Source of the DNA: Polytrichum commune | Taxonomy: Eukaryota; Streptophyta; Polytrichopsida; Polytrichales; Polytrichaceae | Reading direction: 5' to 3' | Assembly (NCBI GenBank): GCA_950295325.1 | Contig: OX485806.1 | Location: forward strand, 35,278,001-35,342,000 | Length of the DNA stretch: 64,000 nucleotides | Shown here: piece after piece, positions 1,031 through 56,906 of the stretch | Layout: each line of letters starts with the position of its first letter | Position numbering within the stretch: position 1 is the first letter of the stretch | Made by a program: the position numbers and the translations under genes | The notes under the pieces: model-generated | The model's input: only the letters and a program-made list of their open reading frames with translations | Database searches by the model: none | What the model was told of the DNA's origin: nothing

Positions 1031-4000
1031 ATGGCGGCTGCATTGGCAGCAGCAGGAGCAGCTTCGACCTCCTCTGTTGCTGCTACAGCTACGAGAAATG
1101 TCAGATCCAGTGGAAACGCTCAAAATTTAGGTTCAATGTCATCATCTCTGCGAGGGAACAGCATCACATTCCCTTCTTGCAATCTGAGCAGCAACTTGAA
1201 GCATCAGCAGAGGAAGAACAGTGTTGTGGTGTCACCACGGGCGGTATCTGATTCTCCAGTTGTTGCAGATGCTCTCTTGAATCCGGATGCCAGCAGGGTA
1301 AGCTCGCTCTCTCTCTACCTATTTAATTCCGACTTATGGTCACAAAAATCTTGATGTTTGATGTTTTTCGATCATGGTGAGAAGTGGGTTGGAGGAAAGA
1401 AATTTGGGAAGATGACGATAGTGTCCAATTCCACTCAACTTGAATGCTGCACGGATCTTCGTTGTTTTGGAAGCCCTCAAAAACCATGAATAGGGTGAAG
1501 CTCATGGTGTGCGCATTGACCACTTAGTCTTTGTTTGTTAACTGGGATGTTAGCAAAATAGTGTAAACTGTGTAATTTTTGGCTCCTGTTGTTCCTACTA
1601 GGTGCTTCAGGGTTTTGGTTTTGGTTTCCCTCTTCTGGTTTCCTTGTGTTGACGAAATTGAGGTCTTAGTACACATGCTATTTCCTACTTATTGTCATAA
1701 ATTTGGTGTTTTTCGATCACTACGATCTTCGAGTGTTGCGTTTAGGAGAAATGGGTAGGAGGAAGAAGTTTAGAAAGATGATGGTTGTGCAGTTCCACTT
1801 AGTTCGTGTGCGCTGGAGTCCTTGAATGACCTTTGTTGTTTTCGAAAGCTCTTAACCCTATTCTTTGCGGTGTTAAGCTCACGGTGTTGTGCACATTGAT
1901 TGGTCTTTGTTTACTGGGTTGTTAGCAGCATAGTGTGAACTAAATTTCAGGGGTTTGCCTTATCTCTGTCTCCTGGTTTCCTTACATTGACGAAATTGAG
2001 TTTTTAGTGGCGATGGGTTCCTGTTGACGGTTACCATCTTCTTTGCAGGAATATGTATGTTGTTGCAGGAATATGTACTTTAGGTTTTTAGTGAGTGTAA
2101 AGACCTTGGTTGGCTGCGTTGTGGAATGTCGATCCTGGGGAAACCTCTGTTATTGATTGAATTTGTGGGTGTGAAAATTACCCTAAGTTTATTGTCATTT
2201 GGAAAAATGTGAGCATTGCATTGCCCAGTGTAAGTTCACAAGCATTTCAAGCAGCAAGTATTTGGTGCAAAGCCCCTTCCTTCATGGAAAGGCAACATGT
2301 GAAGAGAGAGACATGATGATGCTTTAGAGCAGGTGTAGAATTGATTCAAATTAAGATACTTGTATGCAAGGTCTTAGTGCACTTGTCTATGCAATGTTGC
2401 TGAAATTAAGGTCTTACTACACATGCTATACTATACAACTAATTGCATGAGTCTTCTTTAGATGTAGCAGAAGCTTGATATGAGGATCCATTGTGAGTGG
2501 GATATATGTTGTGGAAGGTGGCTTTTCGTCCATGCATATAGATTGTTGTGGAAGATGGCCCCTGCTCAAAATGGTTTGCCACTATTTGGCTATTGCCACA
2601 TATGTGTAATGTTTTCTATTTTGTTCTAGTTTCTGATTGCTTCCTTTTGATTCATTTGTATTGAGTATGTAATTCTAAAAGCTTTGGATTAACTATCTCT
2701 CTTATTTTGTGATCAACATATAAAAGAACAGGGCTAGTACGAAAAACTACTGGAGGTGATAAGCAGGTTTGGCACTTTGGTGCTGAAATGTTAATATATT
2801 GAGGTGACAAATGGATTTTATAGAGGCTGTGACCAATAGAAAAGTGACAAAGGGCACTTTGCACACTATCTGAAGTAATTTGTGCTGAACCTGCTTGTCT
2901 CATATGGGTATATTTGTTGGGTTAGTGGAAAATCATGTATATGGCAAAGTTGACCTTGCACTAGAAAACATGGTTTTATGTGTAGCTGACATAAAATGTG
3001 TCTGCTTTTTTAATGTGCAGAGTGTGCTTGGTATCATTCTGGGTGGAGGAGCAGGATCTCGGTTGTATCCATTAACAAAGAAACGTGCGAAGCCAGCTGT
3101 GCCCTTGGGTGCCAACTACCGATTGATTGATATTCCAGTCAGCAACTGCATTAACAGTAACATCAACAAAATCTATGTGCTCACGCAGTTCAACTCCGCA
3201 TCTTTGAATAGGCATCTGTCTCGAGCCTATTCAAGCAACATGGGAGGATACAAGAATGAGGGGTTTGTTGAGGTTTTGGCTGCACAACAGAGCCCTGAGA
3301 ACCCCAACTGGTTTCAGGTACCGTAAACATTGCTTCCAAAAGAAGGTCCTCAAACTGTAGTAGGCAGAGGATGGAAAATTTTACATTAGCCCAAATTGAC
3401 TATGAGCACTTTGATTAATGAAATTGCGTATTCGAGTAGTTTCGGTGGTGGTGGTTCAGGCCCGCTTTTAACTACAAGTAAGATTGTCTTTGTTTACACA
3501 CAAATACTTCCGGTAGTTGAAGAATGGATTTGATCTCAATGATTGGCCCTTCCACTATTGGTGCAATCTGTGAATTGGAGACAGACAATTTATGGGTTTG
3601 AGTGGAAAGTTTGTCCAAGAGTAATTGCCTCCTACAAATCCTCTTCTCCTAAGCTTTGGCCTTGAAGTTCTCCTATTCCCACCAAGTAACTACAAACACA
3701 ATAGAACCAAAGAAAGTTAATTACAACCATCGCAACTACTCCCAATTACATGTAGTGTAGTGACTTGTATTGTAGTTGGGCAAGGTAGAGTAGTTTGTGG
3801 TGGTGGTTGTCATCAATGTGCCTTATCCCTTCTTACCTTTTAAAAATAGAGCCAAAGAGAGTGAACTACAACCACCAACTACCAAAATGATTGTTGTGTG
3901 TGAATGCACCTTGAGGAGGTTTATGTAATTTGTGACCCCTTTAATTCTGCTCTATTATTGACACAAGCCATTTTTTCCTTCTAAATTTTCAGGGAACCGC

Positions 4001-20779: not shown

Positions 20780-21740
20780 TAGTAAAACAATATTTCTCCA
20801 TAGAAAACTCGACCCACTAATGCTCAATAACTACATACCTATAGCCTAGGCCAATACTATATATAAGCTCTATACTAGCACACTCACTGCCCTACTCACA
20901 AGCTATGGCGAAAAATACAAAATCATCCACTTTAGTCAAGAAGGATTCCGGCCATAAAGAAACATAACTAGGCATATTCAAATGATAATAGCAACACTAG
21001 AAGATGCACGACTAACTAAAAACGACATCTACCTCACCTACGTAGACTTTAGAAATGCCTTTGGATCCATAAACCACACAAGACTCCTCGCACTAATGAA
21101 GGACCTTGGATACCCCCGAGATGCCATTGAACTAATAGGCAATATTTACACAAACTCAACCACCTTCCATGGTAATCACTTCAGAACAACCCCACCCATA
21201 CAAATTAATAGAGGCACCATCCAAGGCGACACCCTAAGCCCCTACCTCTTTCTCATCTTCCTAGACCCACTTCTTCGATGGCTAGAAAAAGACAACATAG
21301 GCTACCACTTCAAGACATCACCAACCACGTGTAACACCACAACATATGCGGACGACCTTGCCATCCTCACCGATAACATAACACATATCCAGCCACAAAT
21401 ACACAAACTCCAAAAATACTCAGAATGGGCGCACTAAGACCTTAATCTCTCTAAGTGCGCAATTACAAGATGCCCAAACAAATCAAACCTAAAACCCACT
21501 ACCTTCAAAGCATAGATACAAGCCCAATGCATCCACTTCAAAAAAAACCCTTCCCTACCCTCACACAAAACGAACCATACACGTATCTTGGCATAAACAT
21601 GGTTCCCTCATTAAAATGGAACATCCAAAAAAACATCACCATAGAAAAAGCCAAAAAGCAAAGCAATTTATTAATGACATCCCCTACTACAATTAAGCAA
21701 AAAACATACATCTTAAATACAATAATAAAACCAGAATGAG
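20780..21740 (+). pseudogene. LINE reverse transcriptase remnant
   Basis: LNNYIPIA (about 20821) matches the LINE motif NYRPI. A 151-codon open frame (20982-21437) contains TYVDFRNAFGSINH (motif A), RGTIQGDTLSPYLFLIF (motif B) and the catalytic TYADDLAIL (YADD at 21344-21355). A stop follows EWAH, and the thumb-like region continues to about 21739 with YLGINM. This is a clear non-LTR reverse transcriptase interrupted by stops. Confidence 0.92.
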
Positions 21741-41240: not shown

Positions 41241-43080
41241 AAGTGGAAATAGACCATATTGAGGGACCATTGCATGTTTTATTAGTGGGGAAAAAAAGAC
41301 AACTCTACCTCATTAGTTACATATGTTCATTTTTATTTTTATTTCACTTTCTTCTTCAATTTTACATTGGTGGGGAAGAAAAGGAGAGCATGATGGATCA
41401 TCTTGAGAGAAGAGGAAGGATTCTTGTTGAATTGGCTTTATATTGGTGTTCGTACATGATTGTGCAACATGTGTTTGATATGCAAGCTTATAAGAGTGTC
41501 TTATATTAGAGTCTAAGATTGAAAGTTGGGTGAAACTACTTGGACTTCCTTTTCCAATCCACAAGCTTTTGGGAGATCTTCAAGATCTAAAATCAAGTCC
41601 ACCCATGATCCTTGCAACCCTAAATCCTAGATCTATCTATGCAAGGTTAGTTTGACCCACTAATTATAGTATGATGAGCCATAAAGTTGTTTTTGTAGAG
41701 TCCAACCCCATTCTTTTAGTAGTAGTAGTAGTAGTAGTAGTAGTAATAATAATAATAATAATATAACGCCGACTTATGTAGGAAGCAAGTATAAATGAAA
41801 AACTTCTTCACCCACGTGCTACTCCTACCTTTCAATTGTTCTTTTAGCATGTTATTAACTTAAGTCTAAAAAAACATGGGTGACTTGACGTATAAGTTGT
41901 CAAACTAACCTTTTTAAAGCCAACTCACCTATAATTTCATTTGGAGAGGAGAAACGAAGAGAGAACTCGAGCAAAGAGAAGCTAATTTGTAATTAGACGC
42001 GTAAAATAATTAAGAGGAGAACATTTAACCTTGGAAATATAAATCTAAAATTTGAGGAGGAATCAATGCCACAAAACCATGAACCTTGTGTATGTGACTA
42101 AAAAACACTTCTATCATAGCTTTGCTCCATACACCCATTTTGGTTTCACTTATGAGCTCAAGCCTATCCACCATTCACACCAACTCAAGCAGTTGGTATC
42201 GTCTCTCTCTATATGAGTGTCTAAATTGAATGGAAGGTCAGGGTCGTCCCTCCACCACAATACACTTGAACCTAATGTTGTTATCCAATTGTGATCGACT
42301 GACAACCACTTGAACCTTGGCTCGTACGTGGCTTGAACATACCATATACACTTTGGGTCCCCATATCATATAAGATAAGCACTTCGGAATTCCCTGTTAG
42401 TCATGGATGAAAATACAACCGATTGGATGATATATTGACTAGGTGAACAACCATGACCATATTTGTAGCCTCACCCTAGAGAGTGTGCAAATGATTGAAT
42501 GCTTTGGGTGTTATGCAACTTAGGACGAGCTTACATTAGGCTCCAAGAGCAAAAGAAAGACATAATTAAGCAATTTTATTGAGGAAATTTGTTGAGCTAA
42601 CGAGTTTACACCACGGCCCTTGTCCCATTAGTTGATCACATAGGTCACCTACACCCATGTTACTTATTGTGGCTTCTCAAAGTTTTGAATCCCAAAGCTT
42701 CGCAATACAAAGGTCACACCCTCTCCACCACATACAAAACTAATCCGAGGTGACGTCCAATTGGACTTATAATCTTATATCATACACCCAACTTCACACC
42801 CATGATCCCACCCCACAACGTTTTGATGCGACCAACTCTTACTTACAACATGCACACTTAGTCCCTATCACAAACTCCCCACGTGAAAGTGACATAAGCC
42901 CGTGGGCAAAGAGACTCTTTATTCATGCTTCTTTCCTTCACGAACTTATCATTTTTATCTATCTATGTAGTTTTATCTATCTATCAGTTGTCGGTCCTTC
43001 AAAACCTTTAACCACACCTACCCTAAGATACATAGAGATGAAATTATGAAAATTGGGTTTCATCCATATTTTGGATAGAA
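41241..43080. other. Intergenic with trinucleotide and tetranucleotide microsatellites
   Basis: (AGT)n followed by (AAT)n at 41720-41763 and TATC repeats near 42957-42985. No gene recognised. Confidence 0.5.
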
Positions 43081-43157
43081 TAGTCTCCTTCACTTTGATG
43101 GTGAGCGCCATCTTGGCCTCCTCAAAAATATGAAAAAAGCTTTGATGAAAGACGCTC

Positions 43158-43174
43158 TTTAGGGTTAGGGTTTC
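43158..43174 (+). promoter_or_regulatory. Telo-box upstream of snoRNA cluster
   Basis: TTTAGGGTTAGGGTTTC contains overlapping AGGGTTT/AAACCCTA telo-box units. In plants these elements mark promoters of ribosomal-protein and snoRNA-cluster genes (established knowledge). It lies about 240 bases before the first snoRNA, and a pyrimidine-rich stretch follows at 43206-43270. It probably belongs to the promoter of a polycistronic snoRNA transcript. Confidence 0.6.
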
Positions 43175-43402
43175 AATGGCGGCCTCGCACTGGAGCGCAC
43201 CATAAGAACTTCGTCTCCCCTGCTTCCCTACATCGCTCTCTCTTCCCTCGCACTCTAGCAGGTTTTCTTTTTTGTGAGTTACAATGCTGCTATCGTAGCG
43301 TCTTGTGCTGTATGTCCATATGCTAAGACTATGAAGTGTTTTTCTTCCAATGTCAATTTTGTTCTAAGTTGGCATTTTATATGTCGTACGTTTTCTGTAA
43401 CG

Positions 43403-43573
43403 CTCTCTGTGATGACGATCTTAGATGACGAATCTGAGTTTTAGGGACTAGGCTACTGAAGGGAAACTTTCTGCGAGATGTTTTATCTCGCAGTTCTGGG
43501 AACCTTCAGGATTCCTTGTTTCCGCTGGCTTGCCAGTTACTCTGAAGCATAAACGAGGCATTTGTCTGAGAGG
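43403..43573 (+). ncRNA. U15: U15-type C/D-box snoRNA, copy 1
   Basis: The terminal stem CTCTC/GAGAG brackets box C (GTGATGA, 43409-43415) and box D (CTGA, 43566-43569), giving about 171 nt. This is unusually long, as in U15. The guide before the internal CTGA (43434-43437), TTAGATGACGA, is complementary to 25S rRNA TCGTCATCTAA. The guide before the terminal box D, ACGAGGCATTTG, is complementary to CAAATGCCTCGT. The two targets abut in AAATGCCTCGTCATCTAA. Counting five bases from each D box, the methylated bases are the G of CTCGTC and the third A of AAATG, equivalent to yeast 25S G2288 and A2281. The middle holds a perfect hairpin, CTGCGAGAT/ATCTCGCAG. All boxes are intact, so this copy is probably functional. 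Confidence 0.9.
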
Positions 43574-43604
43574 AAACAAAGTGATTTATCAACAGGGTCC
43601 ACTG

Positions 43605-43688
43605 CTCGGGTGATGAGACATTCCCTTTCACGACGGTCATCAGAGCTTCGGCTATGTTGATGCCAACATGGAATCGTTATCTGACGAG
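43605..43688 (+). ncRNA. C/D-box snoRNA, predicted 25S guide (snR69-like), copy 1
   Basis: The terminal stem CTCG/CGAG encloses box C GTGATGA (43610-43616) and box D CTGA (43681-43684), about 84 nt. The internal guide TCACGACGGTC is complementary to the 25S rRNA segment GACCGTCGTGA. If the following CAGA is a weak box D', the fifth base pairs with the first C of GACCG. This is the region methylated by yeast snR69 (from memory, C2948). The segment before terminal box D has no target that I recognise. Confidence 0.8.
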
Positions 43689-43730
43689 TTTGTCACGCCT
43701 GGAAAGGGGTTTAGGGCTGTATTTTGGTCG

Positions 43731-43811
43731 GAGCCTAATGATGTATGTCAAATAATCTTTGAGACCTGATGCCTTTTGGCAGTGTTGACAACTAGCAGAC
43801 CCTGAAGGCTC
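43731..43811 (+). ncRNA. snoR66: C/D-box snoRNA, predicted 18S guide (snoR66-like), copy 1
   Basis: The stem GAGCC/GGCTC closes box C (AATGATG) and box D (CTGA at 43802-43805). Box D' is CTGA at 43766-43769 and a C'-like TGTTGAC follows. The D' guide AATCTTTGAGAC is complementary to GTCTCAAAGATT near the 5' end of 18S rRNA. The D'+5 base pairs with the second C of GTCTC, about position 38, the site I recall for plant snoR66. The segment before box D (ACTAGCAGACC) has no target that I recognise. Confidence 0.82.
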
Positions 43812-43906
43812 GTACATTTGCTTCCATGAAATAAGAGATTCTGGATACATCAGCCTTATGGATTTCATATATGTAGGTTATCACAAGTTCTGAATATATG
43901 CGACAA

Positions 43907-44077
43907 CTCTCCGTGATGACGAACTTAGATGACGAATCTGAGTTTAAGGGGCCAGACTACTGGGGTTGAGCTTTCTGTGAGATGTTTTATCTTGCAGTCC
44001 TGCGAACCTCCAGGATGTTTAGTTCCCGCTGGCTTGCCAGTTACTCTGAAGTATAAACGAGGCATTTGTCTGAGAGA
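43907..44077 (+). ncRNA. U15: U15-type C/D-box snoRNA, copy 2
   Basis: Same organisation as copy 1: CTCT stem, box C GTGATGA (43913-43919), internal TTAGATGACGAATCTGA, terminal ACGAGGCATTTGTCTGA (box D 44070-44073) and GAGAG. Both 25S guides are unchanged, while the middle differs at many positions. That pattern indicates selection on the guides. Confidence 0.88.
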
Positions 44078-44160
44078 CCTGCATTGAACTTTTGTTGGTC
44101 ACAAAAGTATAAGTAGCACAAAATAGTCTTGCTGTGTTTTTATATGTCAAATGTTTCGTG

Positions 44161-44243
44161 CTCGGGTGATGAGACATTCCTATCACGACGGTCTTCAGAG
44201 CTTCGGCAATGTTGATAACAACATGGAATCATTATCTGACGAG
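44161..44243 (+). ncRNA. C/D-box snoRNA, predicted 25S guide (snR69-like), copy 2
   Basis: CTCG/CGAG stem, box C GTGATGA near the 5' end and box D CTGA at 44236-44239. The guide TCACGACGGTCT is retained and is one base longer in its match to 25S AGACCGTCGTGA than in copy 1. Length is 83 nt. Probably functional. Confidence 0.8.
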
Positions 44244-44282
44244 TCAATTACGATCATGCGGAAGGGTATATGGTGTGAACGG

Positions 44283-44348
44283 GGGCCTAGTGATGTTTGT
44301 CAAATTAATCTGAGATAGTGTTAATATTTAGCAGACCCTGAATGCTCA
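44283..44348 (+). pseudogene. Decayed snoR66-like copy 2
   Basis: Box C (AGTGATG) and box D (CTGA, preceded by TAGCAGACC) remain, but the D' guide has lost CTTTGAGAC: GTCAAATTAATCTGA replaces the longer segment of copy 1. The closing stem is also weak. It could no longer guide the 18S site. Confidence 0.65.
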
Positions 44349-44423
44349 TGTCCTTTGTGCCTACAAGCAATTTCACTTCGCATTCTTGGTGAGGGAGATT
44401 TACTACGGTGAAAGTTATACAAT

Positions 44424-44593
44424 TCTCTGTGATGACGACCTTAGATGACGAATCTGAGTTTAAGGGGCTAGGCTATTGGAGCGGAGCTTTCTATGGGATG
44501 TTTTATCTCACAGTTCGGCGAACCTCCAGGATGCTTAATTTCCGCTGGTTTGCCAGTTACTCTGAAGCATAAACGAGGCATTTGTCTGAGAGA
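44424..44593 (+). ncRNA. U15: U15-type C/D-box snoRNA, copy 3
   Basis: CTCT stem, box C GTGATGA, TTAGATGACGAATCTGA, ACGAGGCATTTGTCTGA (box D 44586-44589) and GAGAG. Both guides are intact. No companion snoRNAs of the other two types follow this copy. Confidence 0.87.
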
Positions 44594-44685
44594 CCCACAT
44601 AAATAGCTTAAATAATTTACTTCTGGCAACAACTTGAACTTCTTGAAATGTACGATGTTGTGAACCCTAATGCATTTCTATAATG

Positions 44686-44823
44686 CTCTGTGATGACCTT
44701 AGATGATGAATCTGAGTTTAAGCGACTATGGTGGTGGTTGTCAGCTTTTGTGAGAACTGCGAACCTCCATGGTGCCTGTATTTCGCTGGCTTGCCAGTTA
44801 CTCTGAGGTATTTTTCTGAGAGA
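44686..44823 (+). pseudogene. Decayed U15 copy 4
   Basis: Box C and the first guide remain in altered form (TTAGATGATGAATCTGA). The terminal guide ACGAGGCATTTG is deleted, so GGTATTTTTCTGAGAG follows CTCTGA directly. Length is only about 138 nt. It can no longer match the A2281-equivalent site. Confidence 0.7.
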
Positions 44824-45010
44824 TTGGGAGTTCAATTCATTCGACAAAAAATGAAGTCCCACAGGTATCTGCAAGCACATACAGAAAGTATGTGGATAAC
44901 AAGATTCTGCGAGTGTCAAGTGGTGGAGCAGACAATTGGTGTTGATAGTTGTCGTGCGAAGCAGTCTCGTAGTCATCGGGGTACCCACATAAACTACTTG
45001 TAGACATCAG

Positions 45011-45145
45011 GTTTGAAAGACCATTTGACAAACATCTTTACGCTCTATGCAACACGACAAGAATAAAAGACCCGTCAGATAATGATGCCATTTGACATCG
45101 ACATTGCCGAACCTCTGAAGACCATTGTGATAGGAATGACCCGAG
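45011..45145 (-). pseudogene. Inverted relic of the snR69-like/snoR66-like pair
   Basis: On the minus strand, CTCGGGT at 45145-45139 is followed by CATTCCTATCACAATGGTCT, CTTCAGAGG, and TTATCTGACGGG (45086-45071). This is the snR69-like RNA with box C deleted and two changes in the guide. Further along, GATGTTTGTCAAATGGTCTT (45036 onward) is a piece of the snoR66-like RNA. The order of the two is the same as in the plus-strand units. Confidence 0.7.
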
Positions 45146-46035
45146 TATGAATTAACAAGTTCAAGTAATCATGCCACGAAATATGAAAGTCGATAAAGAT
45201 CGTGTTCCATCCATTTCCTTGAACATTTGCACCTACCAATTACTGTATAATGAAGCATGTCAGCGCTCTCTTAAAAATCGTAATAGTTTAATGACGGAAA
45301 GGGCTACAACTTGAATCAATTCTGTATAATGCACATTATTTAACAACCATACAAGTAAAGTTGCAAACTTTACAAGAGAACTGTTTACAGCTCTTGTTGC
45401 GTCCTGTTAGATTGGCACTAGTTCTCTTCTCTGCCAAAAGGGGAAATTCTCTATGCAAAAAAAAGCTCATCAAGCACTTGCCACATACCATGGGAAAGAT
45501 GAAACAATGCATACACTCGTTCCTTGTTAGAAAGCGTACAGCTCTGAAGGTGGGAAAAACTGCTGCCGCGACGTGTGCACACAAATACGTGCCATTTATC
45601 AACCACATACGTGTTGTGACTATTCTACATGGCACCGATCCATTTTATTACTTGCTCCGCCCATCTTCTCCCCATATTGTACATGGCTAAATCATCCGAT
45701 GACCAATAGGAGTTACCTTCGGCTCTGCTACTGATTTCCCATTTTCACACACCATCGATAAATGAGATTTTACATAATGTGGGAACGGCAGACGTCGACA
45801 CCATGGAACGTTTTCACAACAATTGTGCCAAATTATGCTTCTCACAAAAATTGCTTACAAAACTTAAAGTTTCTAATTTCTCTGGAATGCATAAAGTGCC
45901 ACAATGGTTCTCACAACAATGAATAACAACAATCATCTGCTCAACTGCACACAGGGTTTTGTTCTACTATAGTTTCTGTATGTACTTGCATATAGCAATA
46001 GCTTTTCATCTCTCTTGTCTAATGGCAAATTTTCC
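45146..46035 (-). other. 3' flank of the CYP98 gene
   Basis: Probably holds the CYP98 3' UTR (minus strand) and a short intergenic gap. No coding region is supported. Confidence 0.4.
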
Positions 46036-53509: not shown

Positions 53510-54240
53510 TACTATACATCCAGATTTCATCAAGTAACTGGATATGAAGTTGCAATCTAAATCAATTGACAGAAAGTTTTGTTGATGCCTTCATCATAGG
53601 TGAAACTCCGTGTCGGGAGGAATCATGATCACAATCCAGATTGCATAGACTGTCACTTGATATGAAGTTGCAATCTGACTTTGGAATTGACAAAAGCTTT
53701 GTGAGTGCCTCCATCATTCAGTGAAACTCCGTGTCGGGAGAAATCATCAGAATCCAGATTGCATAGACTGTAACTTGATATGAAGTTGCAATCTGACTTT
53801 GGAATTGACGAAAAGCTTTTTTGGTGCCTCCATTATTCAGTGAAACCCCTTGTCGGAAGGAATCATCAGAATGATTCTAGATTGCATAGAGTGTAACTTA
53901 ATTGATATGAAGTTGCAACCTGACCTTGGAATTTACAAAAAAGCTTTGTAGGTGCCTCCATCATTTAGTCAAACTCCGTGTTGGGAGGAATCATCAGAAT
54001 CCAGACTGCGTGTACTCTAACTTGATTGATGTGAAGGCGCATTCTGACTTTGGAATTGACAAAAAGGTTTGTTAGTGCCTCCAGTGAAATTCCTTGTCGG
54101 GAGATGATTCCAGATTGCATAGATTGTAACTTGATATGAAGTTGCAATCTGACCTTGGAATCGACAAAATCCTTGTGGGTGCTTGGATCATTCAGAGAAA
54201 CCCATTCGTGTCGGGAGGAATCATCAGAATCCAGCAAGCA
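53510..54240. repeat. Degenerate ~110-130-bp tandem repeat forming the subtilase upstream region
   Basis: The anchor GTGAAACTCCGTGTCGGGAG or a close variant occurs at about 53600, 53721, 53840, 53968, 54083 and 54194. Between anchors come ATCAGAATCCAGATTGCATAG, GATATGAAGTTGCAATCTGA and GGAATTGACAAA blocks. The last unit ends 18 bases before the subtilase start codon, so the promoter and 5' UTR are built from this array. Confidence 0.88.
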
Positions 54241-54257
54241 ACGAGTGTCGAGCAGAA

Positions 54258-56906
54258 ATGAGAATGAGGATGCTGGTGCTTTCGTTGCTGCTCTGTATGA
54301 TTGTGCAGTCAGCAGCTGGACAACGGCAAAGCTATATTGTGCAAACGGAGCCCAGGAGCTCCGGCATTAGCAAAATCGATCTCGATGCTGAAGCTGCCTA
54401 TTACCAGCAGATGGTTTCGGAGGCAATGCAGTTCAGTGCTGAGTTGCAAGGCATTGCGGTTGACAAGGCTGCGGTTGAGGAGTCCAAAATCTTCCATGTG
54501 TACCGGACTGTGATGAACGGATTTGCAGCTAAGCTGACACCGGAGGAGGTGAAGTATTTGCAGAGCTTGCCTCATGTCACCGGTGTGTACCGGGAGCGCG
54601 TAATGCAGGTCGAGACGACCCACACTCCTGAACTTCTGGGACTGAACCAGTTGCAGGGATTGTGGCCCGAATCCAATTACGGGGAGGGCGTAATCGTGGG
54701 GATGATCGACTCGGGTGTGTTTCCAGAAAGTCCAAGCTTCTCTGACCACCTCATGGCGCCTGTTCCCGCACGTTGGAAGGGGAGTTGTATACCCGGTGCA
54801 AATTTCACAGCTGCAAATTGCAACAAGAAGCTCATTGGGGCACGGTACTACTACAAGGGTTACGAGGCCGACGTTGCGCCTTTGAACTGGACCCAGCATT
54901 CCAAGTCGGCTCGGGACACCGAGGGACACGGCACGCACACATCTTCCACAGCCACGGGGCGATGGGCTTATGGCGCCAGCGTGTTTGGGTTTGCCAATGG
55001 TACAGCACGCGGAATGGCGCCGAGGGCTCATGTTGCAGCTTACAAGGTGATCTTCTTAAGGTTTACTTTGCTCTTTTACTTTCCGAAACTCCATCAACTG
55101 TGAAAGTAGATTCTACGGAGTTTAGAATCTACTGAATCTATGGATGTAAATGTAGTAGTGTGCAGAAACATTTTTGAAATTATCGTTCACAAGGTTATTC
55201 AAAGTCTCGTCGTAATTTCAGTCGATATTATTATACTGAATTATTTAACTAGGAAATGTGGCTATTTTAAACTGACATGGGACAGTTTTTGTTGTTCACC
55301 TTACCATGCTTTGACATGCTTTTTGACCTGTTAGGTGTGTTGGGGGGGTGCTTGCGCCGGCTCGGACATCCTCGCCGCTTACGATGACGCCGTCGCCGAC
55401 GGAGTGGACGTGATCTCATTCTCGATCGGTAGCAGCATCGCGGTCGACTACTTTGCAGATACGATTGCCATCGGGTCGTTTGGTGCGATGAAGCGTGGCA
55501 TCTTTGTTTCCGCCGCGGCGGGGAACAACGGCCCTGGCCCGTATTCAGTGAGAAACGTGGCGCCATGGATTATGACAGTGGGCGCCGCGACCGTGGATAG
55601 GGAGTTTTATTTGGATGCGGCTCTCGGTGATGGAAAGATCGTTCGTGGACAATCAATGTACGCGGGCAAGCCATTGGCTGCTGGGAAAACTCCTTTGATT
55701 ATGGGGACCGGTGCTGCCCTGTCGAAGAATTCGCTCAACGCAGCAGGGATGTGCTTCGCGGGATCCTTGAACGCTACTTTGGTCAAGGGAAAGGTGGTGC
55801 TTTGTTGGCGAGGCATCACCGGGCGGGTCGAGAAGGGCCTCGTAGTTAAGCAGGCCGGCGGGGTGGGCATGATCCTTGCAAACACGGCCGCGAGTGGAGA
55901 CAGCCTGATTGCTGATCCCCATGTGCTGCCAGCCACGATGGTTACCCACTCCGACGGGAAGGTCGTTGAAGCGTACGTAAACTCGGCTGTCAACCCCGTG
56001 GTGGAGCTCCTGCTGCCCGCGTCGACAATGTTGGGAGCCAAAGTGAAAGCGCCCGCGATTGCCGATTTCTCGTCCCGAGGCCCCACAGTGCAGACGCCGC
56101 AGTTACTGAAGCCCGACGTGGTTGCTCCTGGTGTATCCATTCTAGCAGCATGGCCGAGTGACGCTTCCGTGTCGGGGTTCAGCTCCGATCCCCGCCGCGC
56201 TAAGTTTAACATTATCTCCGGAACCTCGATGGCGTGCCCGCACATCAGCGGCTTGGGTGCACTGCTCCGCTCCGCCCACCCAACATGGAGCCCCGCAGCC
56301 ATCCGATCTGCACTCATGACCACTGCGACAAATGAGGACAATTCGCACGGCGTGATCACGGATGGCATCGACAAGTCGAAGGCCACGCCGTACGCCTTTG
56401 GTTCCGGCATAGTGCGGCCGCAGATGGCCCTCAACCCAGGGCTGATCTATGACCTCACCCCCCAAGACCACATCAAGTTCCTGTGTGCTTCGGGATACAC
56501 AGCCCGACAGATGAAGGCGTTCATCCACAGCAAGAGTCCTTGCCCCGTGAAACCCATGCGGATCGAGGATTTCAACTACCCCTCCTTCGTCGCGCGATTC
56601 ACCCCGCAAGACGAGGTAAGCTACATGACAGCTACCTTCCACCGAACTCTGACCAACGTGGGACCTGCGCACTCCCATTACACCTCCTCCATTCATGATC
56701 CGCCCAAAGGCTATCACATCTCGGTTAAGCCCCAGACCCTAAGCTTCAAGGCGAAGCACGAGAAGCGCAGCTTCACGCTCACAGTGACGGTGCCGAACTC
56801 CCCCCTCCCGCAGCCTGGCGCCCTCGACACGGCATTCTCGTACCTGCACTGGGAGGACGGAGTGCACGTAGTGCGGAGCCCCATAGCCATCGCCAAGCAG
56901 GGATGA
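54258..56906 (+). CDS. Secreted subtilisin-like serine protease (plant subtilase, S8)
   Basis: An apoplastic peptidase. Two exons, 54258-55046 and 55335-56906, join at AAYK/VCWGG to give 786 aa, normal for the family. The chosen ATG starts a signal peptide (MRMRMLVLSLLLCMIVQSAAG); the open frame reaches further upstream but without ATG. The I9 propeptide follows (SYIVQTEP to about VMQVETTHTPELLGL). The triad is intact: Asp151 (GMIDSGVFPES), His224 (GHGTHTSST) and Ser561 (ISGTSMACPH). The oxyanion Asn327 lies in AAGNNGPG. A PA domain (GKVVLCWRG) is inserted between His and Ser, and a fibronectin-III-like C-terminus ends at IAIAKQG. Exon 2 is GC-rich compared with its flanks. Substrate unknown. 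Confidence 0.96.

What the first reader, a model, noticed from the sequence alone, without database searches (positions are those of the whole stretch)
43403..44823. Tandemly multiplied C/D snoRNA cluster (U15, snR69-like, snoR66-like)
Four U15-type, two 25S-guide and two 18S-guide units lie in 1.4 kb in repeated order U15 - snR69-like - snoR66-like. Boxes, terminal stems and guides are seen directly. Clustered multiplied snoRNA genes are a known plant feature, but this combination and its partial decay within one locus may be lineage-specific.
Basis: partly seen in the sequence, partly recalled or inferred. Interest (0 to 1): 0.85.

Follow-up and report, generated by a model that had tools for sequence, protein, structure and literature searches.

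The report
Duplicated plant rRNA-guide snoRNA cluster
A run of small RNA genes that tell a plant cell where to chemically mark its ribosomal RNA, copied several times in a row with some copies decaying; this is an ordinary kind of plant gene cluster, with one stray copy of the set inside an intron and flanked by transposon-like ends.

Summary
The cluster is real. Window 43404-44824 (+) holds four U15-type, two U35-type and two snoR66-type box C/D units in repeated order U15-U35-R66. The second R66 has lost its 18S guide and the fourth U15 is partly decayed; a decayed U35-R66 pair lies inverted at 45007-45145, outside the reported range. No unit reaches Rfam's gathering score. Still, perfect guides of 11 nt or more next to CTGA/CAGA boxes are concentrated here (9 of 63 sites against 1 of 640 elsewhere in the window), and snoRNA segments stay 75-92% identical between repeat units while spacers fall to 25-62%. 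A telo-box lies 230 nt upstream. The same contig carries a second stand-alone cluster and a copy in an intron of a ZCRB1 (U11/U12-31K)-like gene, where only U35 looks intact and the block sits between inverted arms of a dispersed repeat. New member of a known kind (plant polycistronic C/D clusters); transposon-assisted relocation is the novel possibility. No transcript data were available.

The parts
43158..43173 (+). telo-box run (TTTAGGGTTAGGGTTT; AAACCCTA on the other strand at 43166-43173), probable promoter or 5' element
   Evidence: motif scan; conserved at the paralogous cluster L008 2259-2279. Site II (TGGGCY) not found within 1 kb upstream here.
43174..43403 (+). 5' leader, conserved with L008 and in its 3' part with L009; no reading frame seen to be shared, so probably non-coding
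   Evidence: alignments; frame statement read by eye
43404..43574 (+). U15-1, intact: C box, D' guide to 25S G(2289-type), D guide to 25S A(2282-type), internal hairpin, terminal stem
43604..43689 (+). U35-1, boxes kept, 25S guide with one mismatch beside the D' box
   Evidence: (snoZ161_228, same clan as SNORD35)
43732..43810 (+). snoR66-1, intact, 13-nt D' guide to 18S (C38-type site)
   Evidence: (snoR66 25.8 bits E 0.022; snoR72 26.5 bits E 0.62 also listed)
43908..44078 (+). U15-2, intact
44159..44245 (+). U35-2, intact, 12-nt guide to 25S (C2960-type site)
44287..44347 (+). snoR66-2, C and D boxes kept but 18S C38 guide lost; a new CTGA is preceded by a near-background 10-nt match elsewhere in 18S
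   Evidence: no Rfam match listed at this place
44424..44594 (+). U15-3, intact
44685..44824 (+). U15-4, shortened: internal hairpin lost, both guides carry changes, C, D' and D boxes kept
45066..45145 (-). inverted U35 remnant, C box deleted, guide mutated (outside the reported range)
45007..45045 (-). inverted snoR66 remnant, 3' half not found

Best explanation
An intergenic, independently transcribed polycistronic cluster of box C/D snoRNA genes that arose by tandem duplication of a three-gene unit U15-U35-snoR66. One RNA polymerase II precursor, starting near the telo-box at about 43160, would be cut into separate snoRNAs held by terminal stems and C/D boxes. U15 would direct 2'-O-methylation of 25S at the A2282 and G2289 equivalents, U35 at C2960, and snoR66 of 18S at C38. 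Three U15, two U35 and one R66 copy look functional; U15-4, R66-2 and an inverted U35-R66 pair are decaying redundant copies. Shown here: gene anatomy, guide complementarity, target spacing, conservation of snoRNA segments over spacers, and genome copies. Inferred: transcription, processing and methylation.
For: Repeat structure with 504/516-nt spacing. Sub-threshold Rfam matches on the right strand and at the right places: SNORD15 31.0, 27.5, 27.2 and 25.0 bits at the four U15, SNORD35 30.4 at U35-2, snoZ161_228 (same clan) 24.3 at U35-1, snoR66 25.8 at R66-1. Guide duplexes of 12-13 nt whose score shuffled units reached in 0-1 of 40 for U15-1/2/3 (D guide), U35-1/2 and R66-1, and in 2 of 40 for the L008 R66. 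Enrichment 9 of 63 against 1 of 640 box sites. The two U15 targets lie 7 nt apart on 25S as A2282 and G2289 do in Arabidopsis, and the U35 target lies 11 nt 3' of the snR69 site, as C2960 and C2949 do. Between units A, B and the L008 unit, snoRNA segments are 81-86% (U15), 89-92% (U35) and 75-92% (R66) identical; spacers 25-62%. Telo-box upstream in both stand-alone clusters.
Against: No unit reaches its Rfam gathering score (0 matches in the 64-kb window); at R66-1 snoR72 has slightly more bits than snoR66 (26.5 against 25.8) though a worse E-value. No expression data. No Site II element in the 1 kb upstream in the window, though L008 has one. Telo-type octamers are not rare here (41 counted in the window, seven permutations, both strands). 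Covariation in U15 helices is weak: 17 of 500 shuffles reach the score, 148 of 500 for pairs changed on both sides, and the structure was taken from the fold of one of the sequences. The host's own 18S was not found; the 18S used is from an animal-like contig.
Confidence: 0.92

Rival explanations
1. The whole cluster is a graveyard: the working U15, U35 and R66 genes are the stand-alone cluster L008 (C4:26.4 Mb) or others, and the window copies are untranscribed duplicates.
For: Redundant copies exist at C4:26.4 Mb and C4:34.8 Mb; four of the ten elements in and beside the cluster are visibly decayed.
Against: Boxes and guides of U15-1/2/3, U35-1/2 and R66-1 are kept while spacers have diverged to 25-62% identity, which neutral drift would not give; the telo-box and leader are kept.
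Confidence: 0.07
2. The 25S-guide units are snR69-type (C2949-type site).
For: The two target sites are only 11 nt apart.
Against: The 12-nt duplex covers AGACCGTCGTGA and the fifth base faces the C2960-type site. SNORD35 or its clan gives the best Rfam match, and no snR69 family is among the 29 listed matches (7 lower-scoring overlapping matches of the same clans were not shown).
Confidence: 0.02

Closest known systems
Arabidopsis/rice U15a-U15b-snoR7(-snoR18b) cluster (PMC5122169, section 6 and passages read)
   Same: Plant C/D cluster with tandem U15 copies
   Different: Partners are snoR7 and snoR18b there, U35 and snoR66 here; U15-U35-R66 is not among the ten conserved clusters described in that section (the other rice clusters are not described there)
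Arabidopsis U15, U35 and SnoR66 guides (PMC8053127, table and passages read)
   Same: Same predicted sites: U15 A2282 (D) and G2289 (D'), U35 C2960, SnoR66 C38
   Different: Sequences do not reach the gathering scores of the Rfam models; the Arabidopsis RNAs themselves were not compared
Telo-box/Site II snoRNA promoters (PMC4660826, passages read)
   Same: Telo-box upstream of both stand-alone clusters
   Different: No Site II within 1 kb in the window
snoRNA intragenomic mobility, 'constrained drift' (PMC3511168, passages read)
   Same: The same snoRNA set found stand-alone and in an intron
   Different: The intronic copy here lies between inverted arms of a dispersed DNA repeat; the words transposon and transposable do not occur in that paper's main text

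Membership tests
U15 (SNORD15) box C/D snoRNA | C box, D' and D boxes, terminal stem | tested here: met
   U15-1/2/3 intact; U15-4 boxes kept
U15 (SNORD15) box C/D snoRNA | D guide to 25S A2282-type and D' guide to G2289-type site, fifth base rule (rule recalled) | tested here: met
   12-nt and 11-nt duplexes, 1 and 2 nt before CTGA, in U15-1/2/3; U15-4 keeps the D' duplex with a G-U pair. Target spacing as. Target letters come from a 25S fragment on host contig C3, not an rDNA array
U15 (SNORD15) box C/D snoRNA | Rfam RF00067 gathering score 75 | tested here: not met
   25.0-31.0 bits
U35 (SNORD35) | Guide to 25S C2960-type site | tested here: met
   12-13 nt duplex in U35-1, U35-2 and the L008 and L009 copies; not in the inverted remnant
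U35 (SNORD35) | Rfam RF00211 gathering score 36 | tested here: not met
   30.4 bits for U35-2; U35-1 listed only under snoZ161_228, 24.3 bits of 45
snR69 / SnoR69Y | Guide to 25S C2949-type site | tested here: not met
   Duplex lies 3' of that site
snoR66 | D' guide to 18S C38-type site | tested here: met
   R66-1: 13 nt directly before CTGA; R66-2: lost. 18S letters from the animal-like contig C22
snoR66 | Rfam RF00202 gathering score 43 | tested here: not met
   25.8 bits for R66-1; R66-2 not listed
Plant polycistronic snoRNA gene with TeloSII promoter | Telo-box and Site II within 1 kb upstream | tested here: inconclusive
   Telo-box yes, Site II no in the window; both in L008
Plant polycistronic snoRNA gene with TeloSII promoter | Single precursor transcript | not testable with these tools
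   No RNA data
Captured segment in a TIR DNA element (L009 copy) | Inverted arms of a dispersed repeat family on both sides of the block | tested here: met
   Arms 2581-2674 / 3229-3323, 78%; arm query has 50 listed genome matches with 8 other opposite-strand pairs, 7 of these 8 also with inverted arms by self-comparison, L014 not
Captured segment in a TIR DNA element (L009 copy) | Target-site duplication | tested here: not met
   Flanks GGA and TTC differ
Captured segment in a TIR DNA element (L009 copy) | Other members of the repeat family carry segments with a parent copy elsewhere | tested here: not met
   One element tested: the long interior of L020 matches only itself

The most novel reading that the evidence does not exclude
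A non-autonomous terminal-inverted-repeat DNA element took up a whole U15-U35-R66 unit with part of its leader, and carried it from a stand-alone polycistron into intron 1 of a gene for a minor-spliceosome protein (ZCRB1, U11/U12-31K), in the sense orientation. There only U35 was kept. This would be a concrete DNA-transposon vehicle for the known wandering of snoRNAs between independent and intronic homes. Beside it, snoR66-2 may be a retargeted guide (18S TTAATTTGAC), though its 10-nt match is near background.
Probability: 0.3. Interest if true: 0.55.

Novelty: new member of a known kind. Interest (0 to 1): 0.36.

Why it matters
It adds a probable bryophyte example of plant snoRNA clusters. 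It shows that Rfam gathering thresholds can miss every unit of a real cluster. It also puts stand-alone, decaying and intron-borne copies of one snoRNA unit on one chromosome-sized contig, which makes the question of how snoRNAs move into introns testable by synteny.

Tried and rejected
Rejected: snR69 identity for the 25S-guide units. Not accepted as shown: a new 18S target for R66-2. Perfect 10-nt matches next to a box occur at 8 of 640 sites outside the cluster, so one in this unit is weak; a second match in R66-2, 11 nt to LSU (3 of 40 shuffles as good), lies 5 nt from its D box, which is the wrong distance. The D-side guides of U35 and R66 gave no convincing target in the rRNA available: the three window U35 copies share their best 18S match (position 867 of the slice used), but it runs into the D box and shuffles reach its score in 12-34 of 40, and the L008 and L009 copies prefer another place. 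L020, the other paired element with a long interior, was used as a control for capture: its interior matches only itself in the genome, so it gives no independent support for capture and shows that arms may simply flank unique DNA. The arm repeat was not found in the window or L008 (BLAST, E up to 0.01), and 44825-46020 matched only itself and U35-2 in the genome. Whole-length rRNA searches gave no answer and were not repeated. Papers: ten searches (two searches returned nothing); no title or abstract start listed named a U15-U35-R66 cluster or a snoRNA inside a DNA transposon, which is no proof of absence, because only open-licence papers are held and I opened five (PMC5122169, PMC8053127, PMC8351944, PMC4660826, PMC3511168), in passages, plus section 6 of the first.

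Full report
What is there. The stretch 43404-44824 holds eight C/D units in the order U15, U35, R66, U15, U35, R66, U15, U15, on the + strand. The long repeat is 182 nt in three copies at 504- and 516-nt spacing, with a fourth, shorter U15 about 260 nt further on. Rfam finds nothing at gathering thresholds in the window. With permissive settings on 42800-45600, matches appear at seven of the eight units, on the right strand: SNORD15 at all four U15 (31.0, 27.5, 27.2 and 25.0 bits; gathering 75), SNORD35 at the second U35 (30.4; gathering 36), snoZ161_228, of the same clan, at the first U35 (24.3; gathering 45), and snoR66 at the first R66 (25.8; gathering 43), where snoR72 has 26.5 bits but a worse E-value; none is listed at the second R66. 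A published remark that plant snoRNAs are not always recognised by Rfam models of the equivalent animal snoRNA fits this (PMC3511168, passages).

Guides and targets. U15-1, -2 and -3 carry ACGAGGCATTTG one base before the D box, a 12-nt match to 25S CAAATGCCTCGT, and TTAGATGACGA two bases before D', an 11-nt match to TCGTCATCTAA. By the fifth-base rule (recalled) these face an A and a G seven bases apart, as A2282 and G2289 are in Arabidopsis, where U15 is assigned to both (PMC8053127, table and passages). Both U35 copies pair 12-13 nt with 25S around AGACCGTCGTGA, facing the C assigned to U35 (C2960); the SnoR69Y site (C2949) is 11 nt upstream, so the label snR69 does not hold. R66-1 pairs 13 nt with 18S GTCTCAAAGATTA directly before D', facing C38, assigned to SnoR66. 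In shuffles of each unit the best score on the relevant target was reached in 0 or 1 of 40 for these window copies, and in 2 of 40 for the L008 R66. The target letters are imperfect stand-ins: 25S fragments on host contigs C3 (one exact place) and C2 (one of eleven exact places), and 18S from contig C22, the only 18S match found. C22's rDNA looks animal-like to me (by recall), so host 18S itself was not seen.

Is it more than chance? In the window the scan took 703 CTGA or CAGA sites on both strands. A perfect rRNA complement of 11 nt or more ending 0-3 nt before the box occurs at 9 of the 63 sites inside 43400-45150 and at 1 of the 640 outside; at 12 nt the counts are 5 of 63 and 0 of 640; at 10 nt they are 11 of 63 and 8 of 640.

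Selection and decay. Between units A and B of the window and the unit of L008, U15 is 81-86%, U35 89-92% and R66 75-92% identical over ungapped columns, while the three spacers are 25-62%. Four U15 helices, taken from the fold of U15-1, pair in 91.7% of cells over six copies, but covariation is weak (17 of 500 shuffles reach the score, 148 of 500 the pairs changed on both sides). U15-1 folds with z -2.49; 5 of 200 shuffles fold as well. Decayed: U15-4 (deletions, hairpin lost, guide changes), R66-2 (18S guide lost), and the inverted U35-R66 pair at 45007-45145, whose U35 lacks its C box. A block of U15, CCGCTGGCTTGCCAGTTACTCTGA, has at most three changes in the eight copies seen, decayed ones and the remnant on contig C1 included. 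In Arabidopsis a common extra pair on the top loop of U15 has been proposed (PMC8053127, passages); this block may play that part, which I could not test.

Expression. A telo-box run lies at 43158-43173, 230 nt upstream of U15-1; L008 has a longer one with a Site II element, and the leader is conserved between them. In the window no Site II was found within 1 kb. Of ten ORFs given to Pfam (21 of at least 130 aa were listed), the nearest with a match on the downstream side are a P450 (46036-48273, minus) and a subtilase (54183-56906, plus), and upstream a reverse transcriptase piece at 20982. I infer a stand-alone polymerase II polycistron.

Other copies. DNA searches of the whole genome listed seven U15-type and four U35-R66 places. 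They fall in the window cluster, in L008 (C4:26.40 Mb; two U15, one U35, one R66, plus a U35 remnant), in L009 (C4:34.83 Mb) and in a 50-nt U15 piece on C1; a model built from six copies scores the C1 place over its full length at 49.5 bits, with C and D boxes degraded. The fourth U15 of the window was not among the seven, so these counts are lower bounds.

The intronic copy. At L009 the block runs from part of the leader through R66 on the minus strand. U35 is intact; U15 lacks its D' region and R66 its C and D' boxes. It lies between two coding pieces, found by eye, which when joined match the RRM of ZCRB1 at E 6.1e-26, next best 4.9e-17; a CCHC-like stretch follows downstream (by eye). That this is intron 1 is my reading. 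On both sides lie inverted arms (2581-2674 and 3229-3323, 78%). On the left the block ends near 2734, 60 nt from the arm, or 28 nt if the arm's second sub-repeat up to 2706 is counted. On the right, similarity found by BLAST starts at 3103, but in the multiple alignment leader-like sequence reaches almost to the arm. The left arm as query listed 50 matches (a lower bound), and besides L009 I count eight opposite-strand pairs 244-738 bp across. Self-comparison recovers inverted arms in seven of those eight (not L014), and in one of five further places fetched (L024 of L021-L025). Against capture: no target-site duplication at L009; TTA beside one end in four of the eight others only; and the other long-interior element, L020, has a unique interior. 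The L009 block is about as close to unit A (79.0%) as to the L008 unit (78.0%), so its parent is not resolved. I hold capture as possible (about 0.3), not shown.

Organism. Seven contigs sum to 406.07 of 407.81 Mb (lengths; total). With a plant-type ITS/5.8S fragment on C5 (judged by recall) this suggests a land plant with seven chromosomes; a moss of the Polytrichum group is my guess from recall and no call shows it.

Verdict. Real, correctly seen in outline, mislabelled in one of three families, slightly under-reported in extent. The kind is well known in plants (PMC5122169, section 6; PMC4660826, passages). This gene combination was not among the clusters described in the section read.

Noticed in passing
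L009 2564-3333 (C4:34827564-34828333): U15-U35-R66 block flanked by inverted arms of a dispersed repeat, inside an intron of a ZCRB1-like gene, sense orientation.
   Followed up: partly
L010 about 991-1080 (C3:19.74 Mb): A 90-nt 25S rRNA fragment, from AAGGTAGCC on, lies alone beside open reading frames (three tested, no Pfam match); by recall this is the stretch where R2-type elements insert in rDNA.
   Followed up: partly
L011 and L012 (C3:16.44 Mb, C2:58.19 Mb): Larger 25S pieces, in part repeated, sit among dispersed low-complexity repeats (by eye); the U35 target pattern has 11 exact places on seven contigs.
   Followed up: no
L006 about 1050-1800 (C5:7.94 Mb): A degraded plant-type ITS1-5.8S-ITS2 fragment lies in what looks like a protein-coding gene region (by eye).
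   Followed up: no
G000 contig C22 (19.9 kb), L007: rDNA with an animal-like 5.8S, probably from a contaminant living with the plant (by recall).
   Followed up: no
window 44287-44347: In snoR66-2 a small deletion (as I read it) makes a new CTGA preceded by GTCAAATTAA, a 10-nt match to 18S TTAATTTGAC.
   Followed up: partly
L026 1109-1267 (C1:44.65 Mb): A strongly diverged U15 with its D guide kept but C, D' and D boxes degraded.
   Followed up: partly
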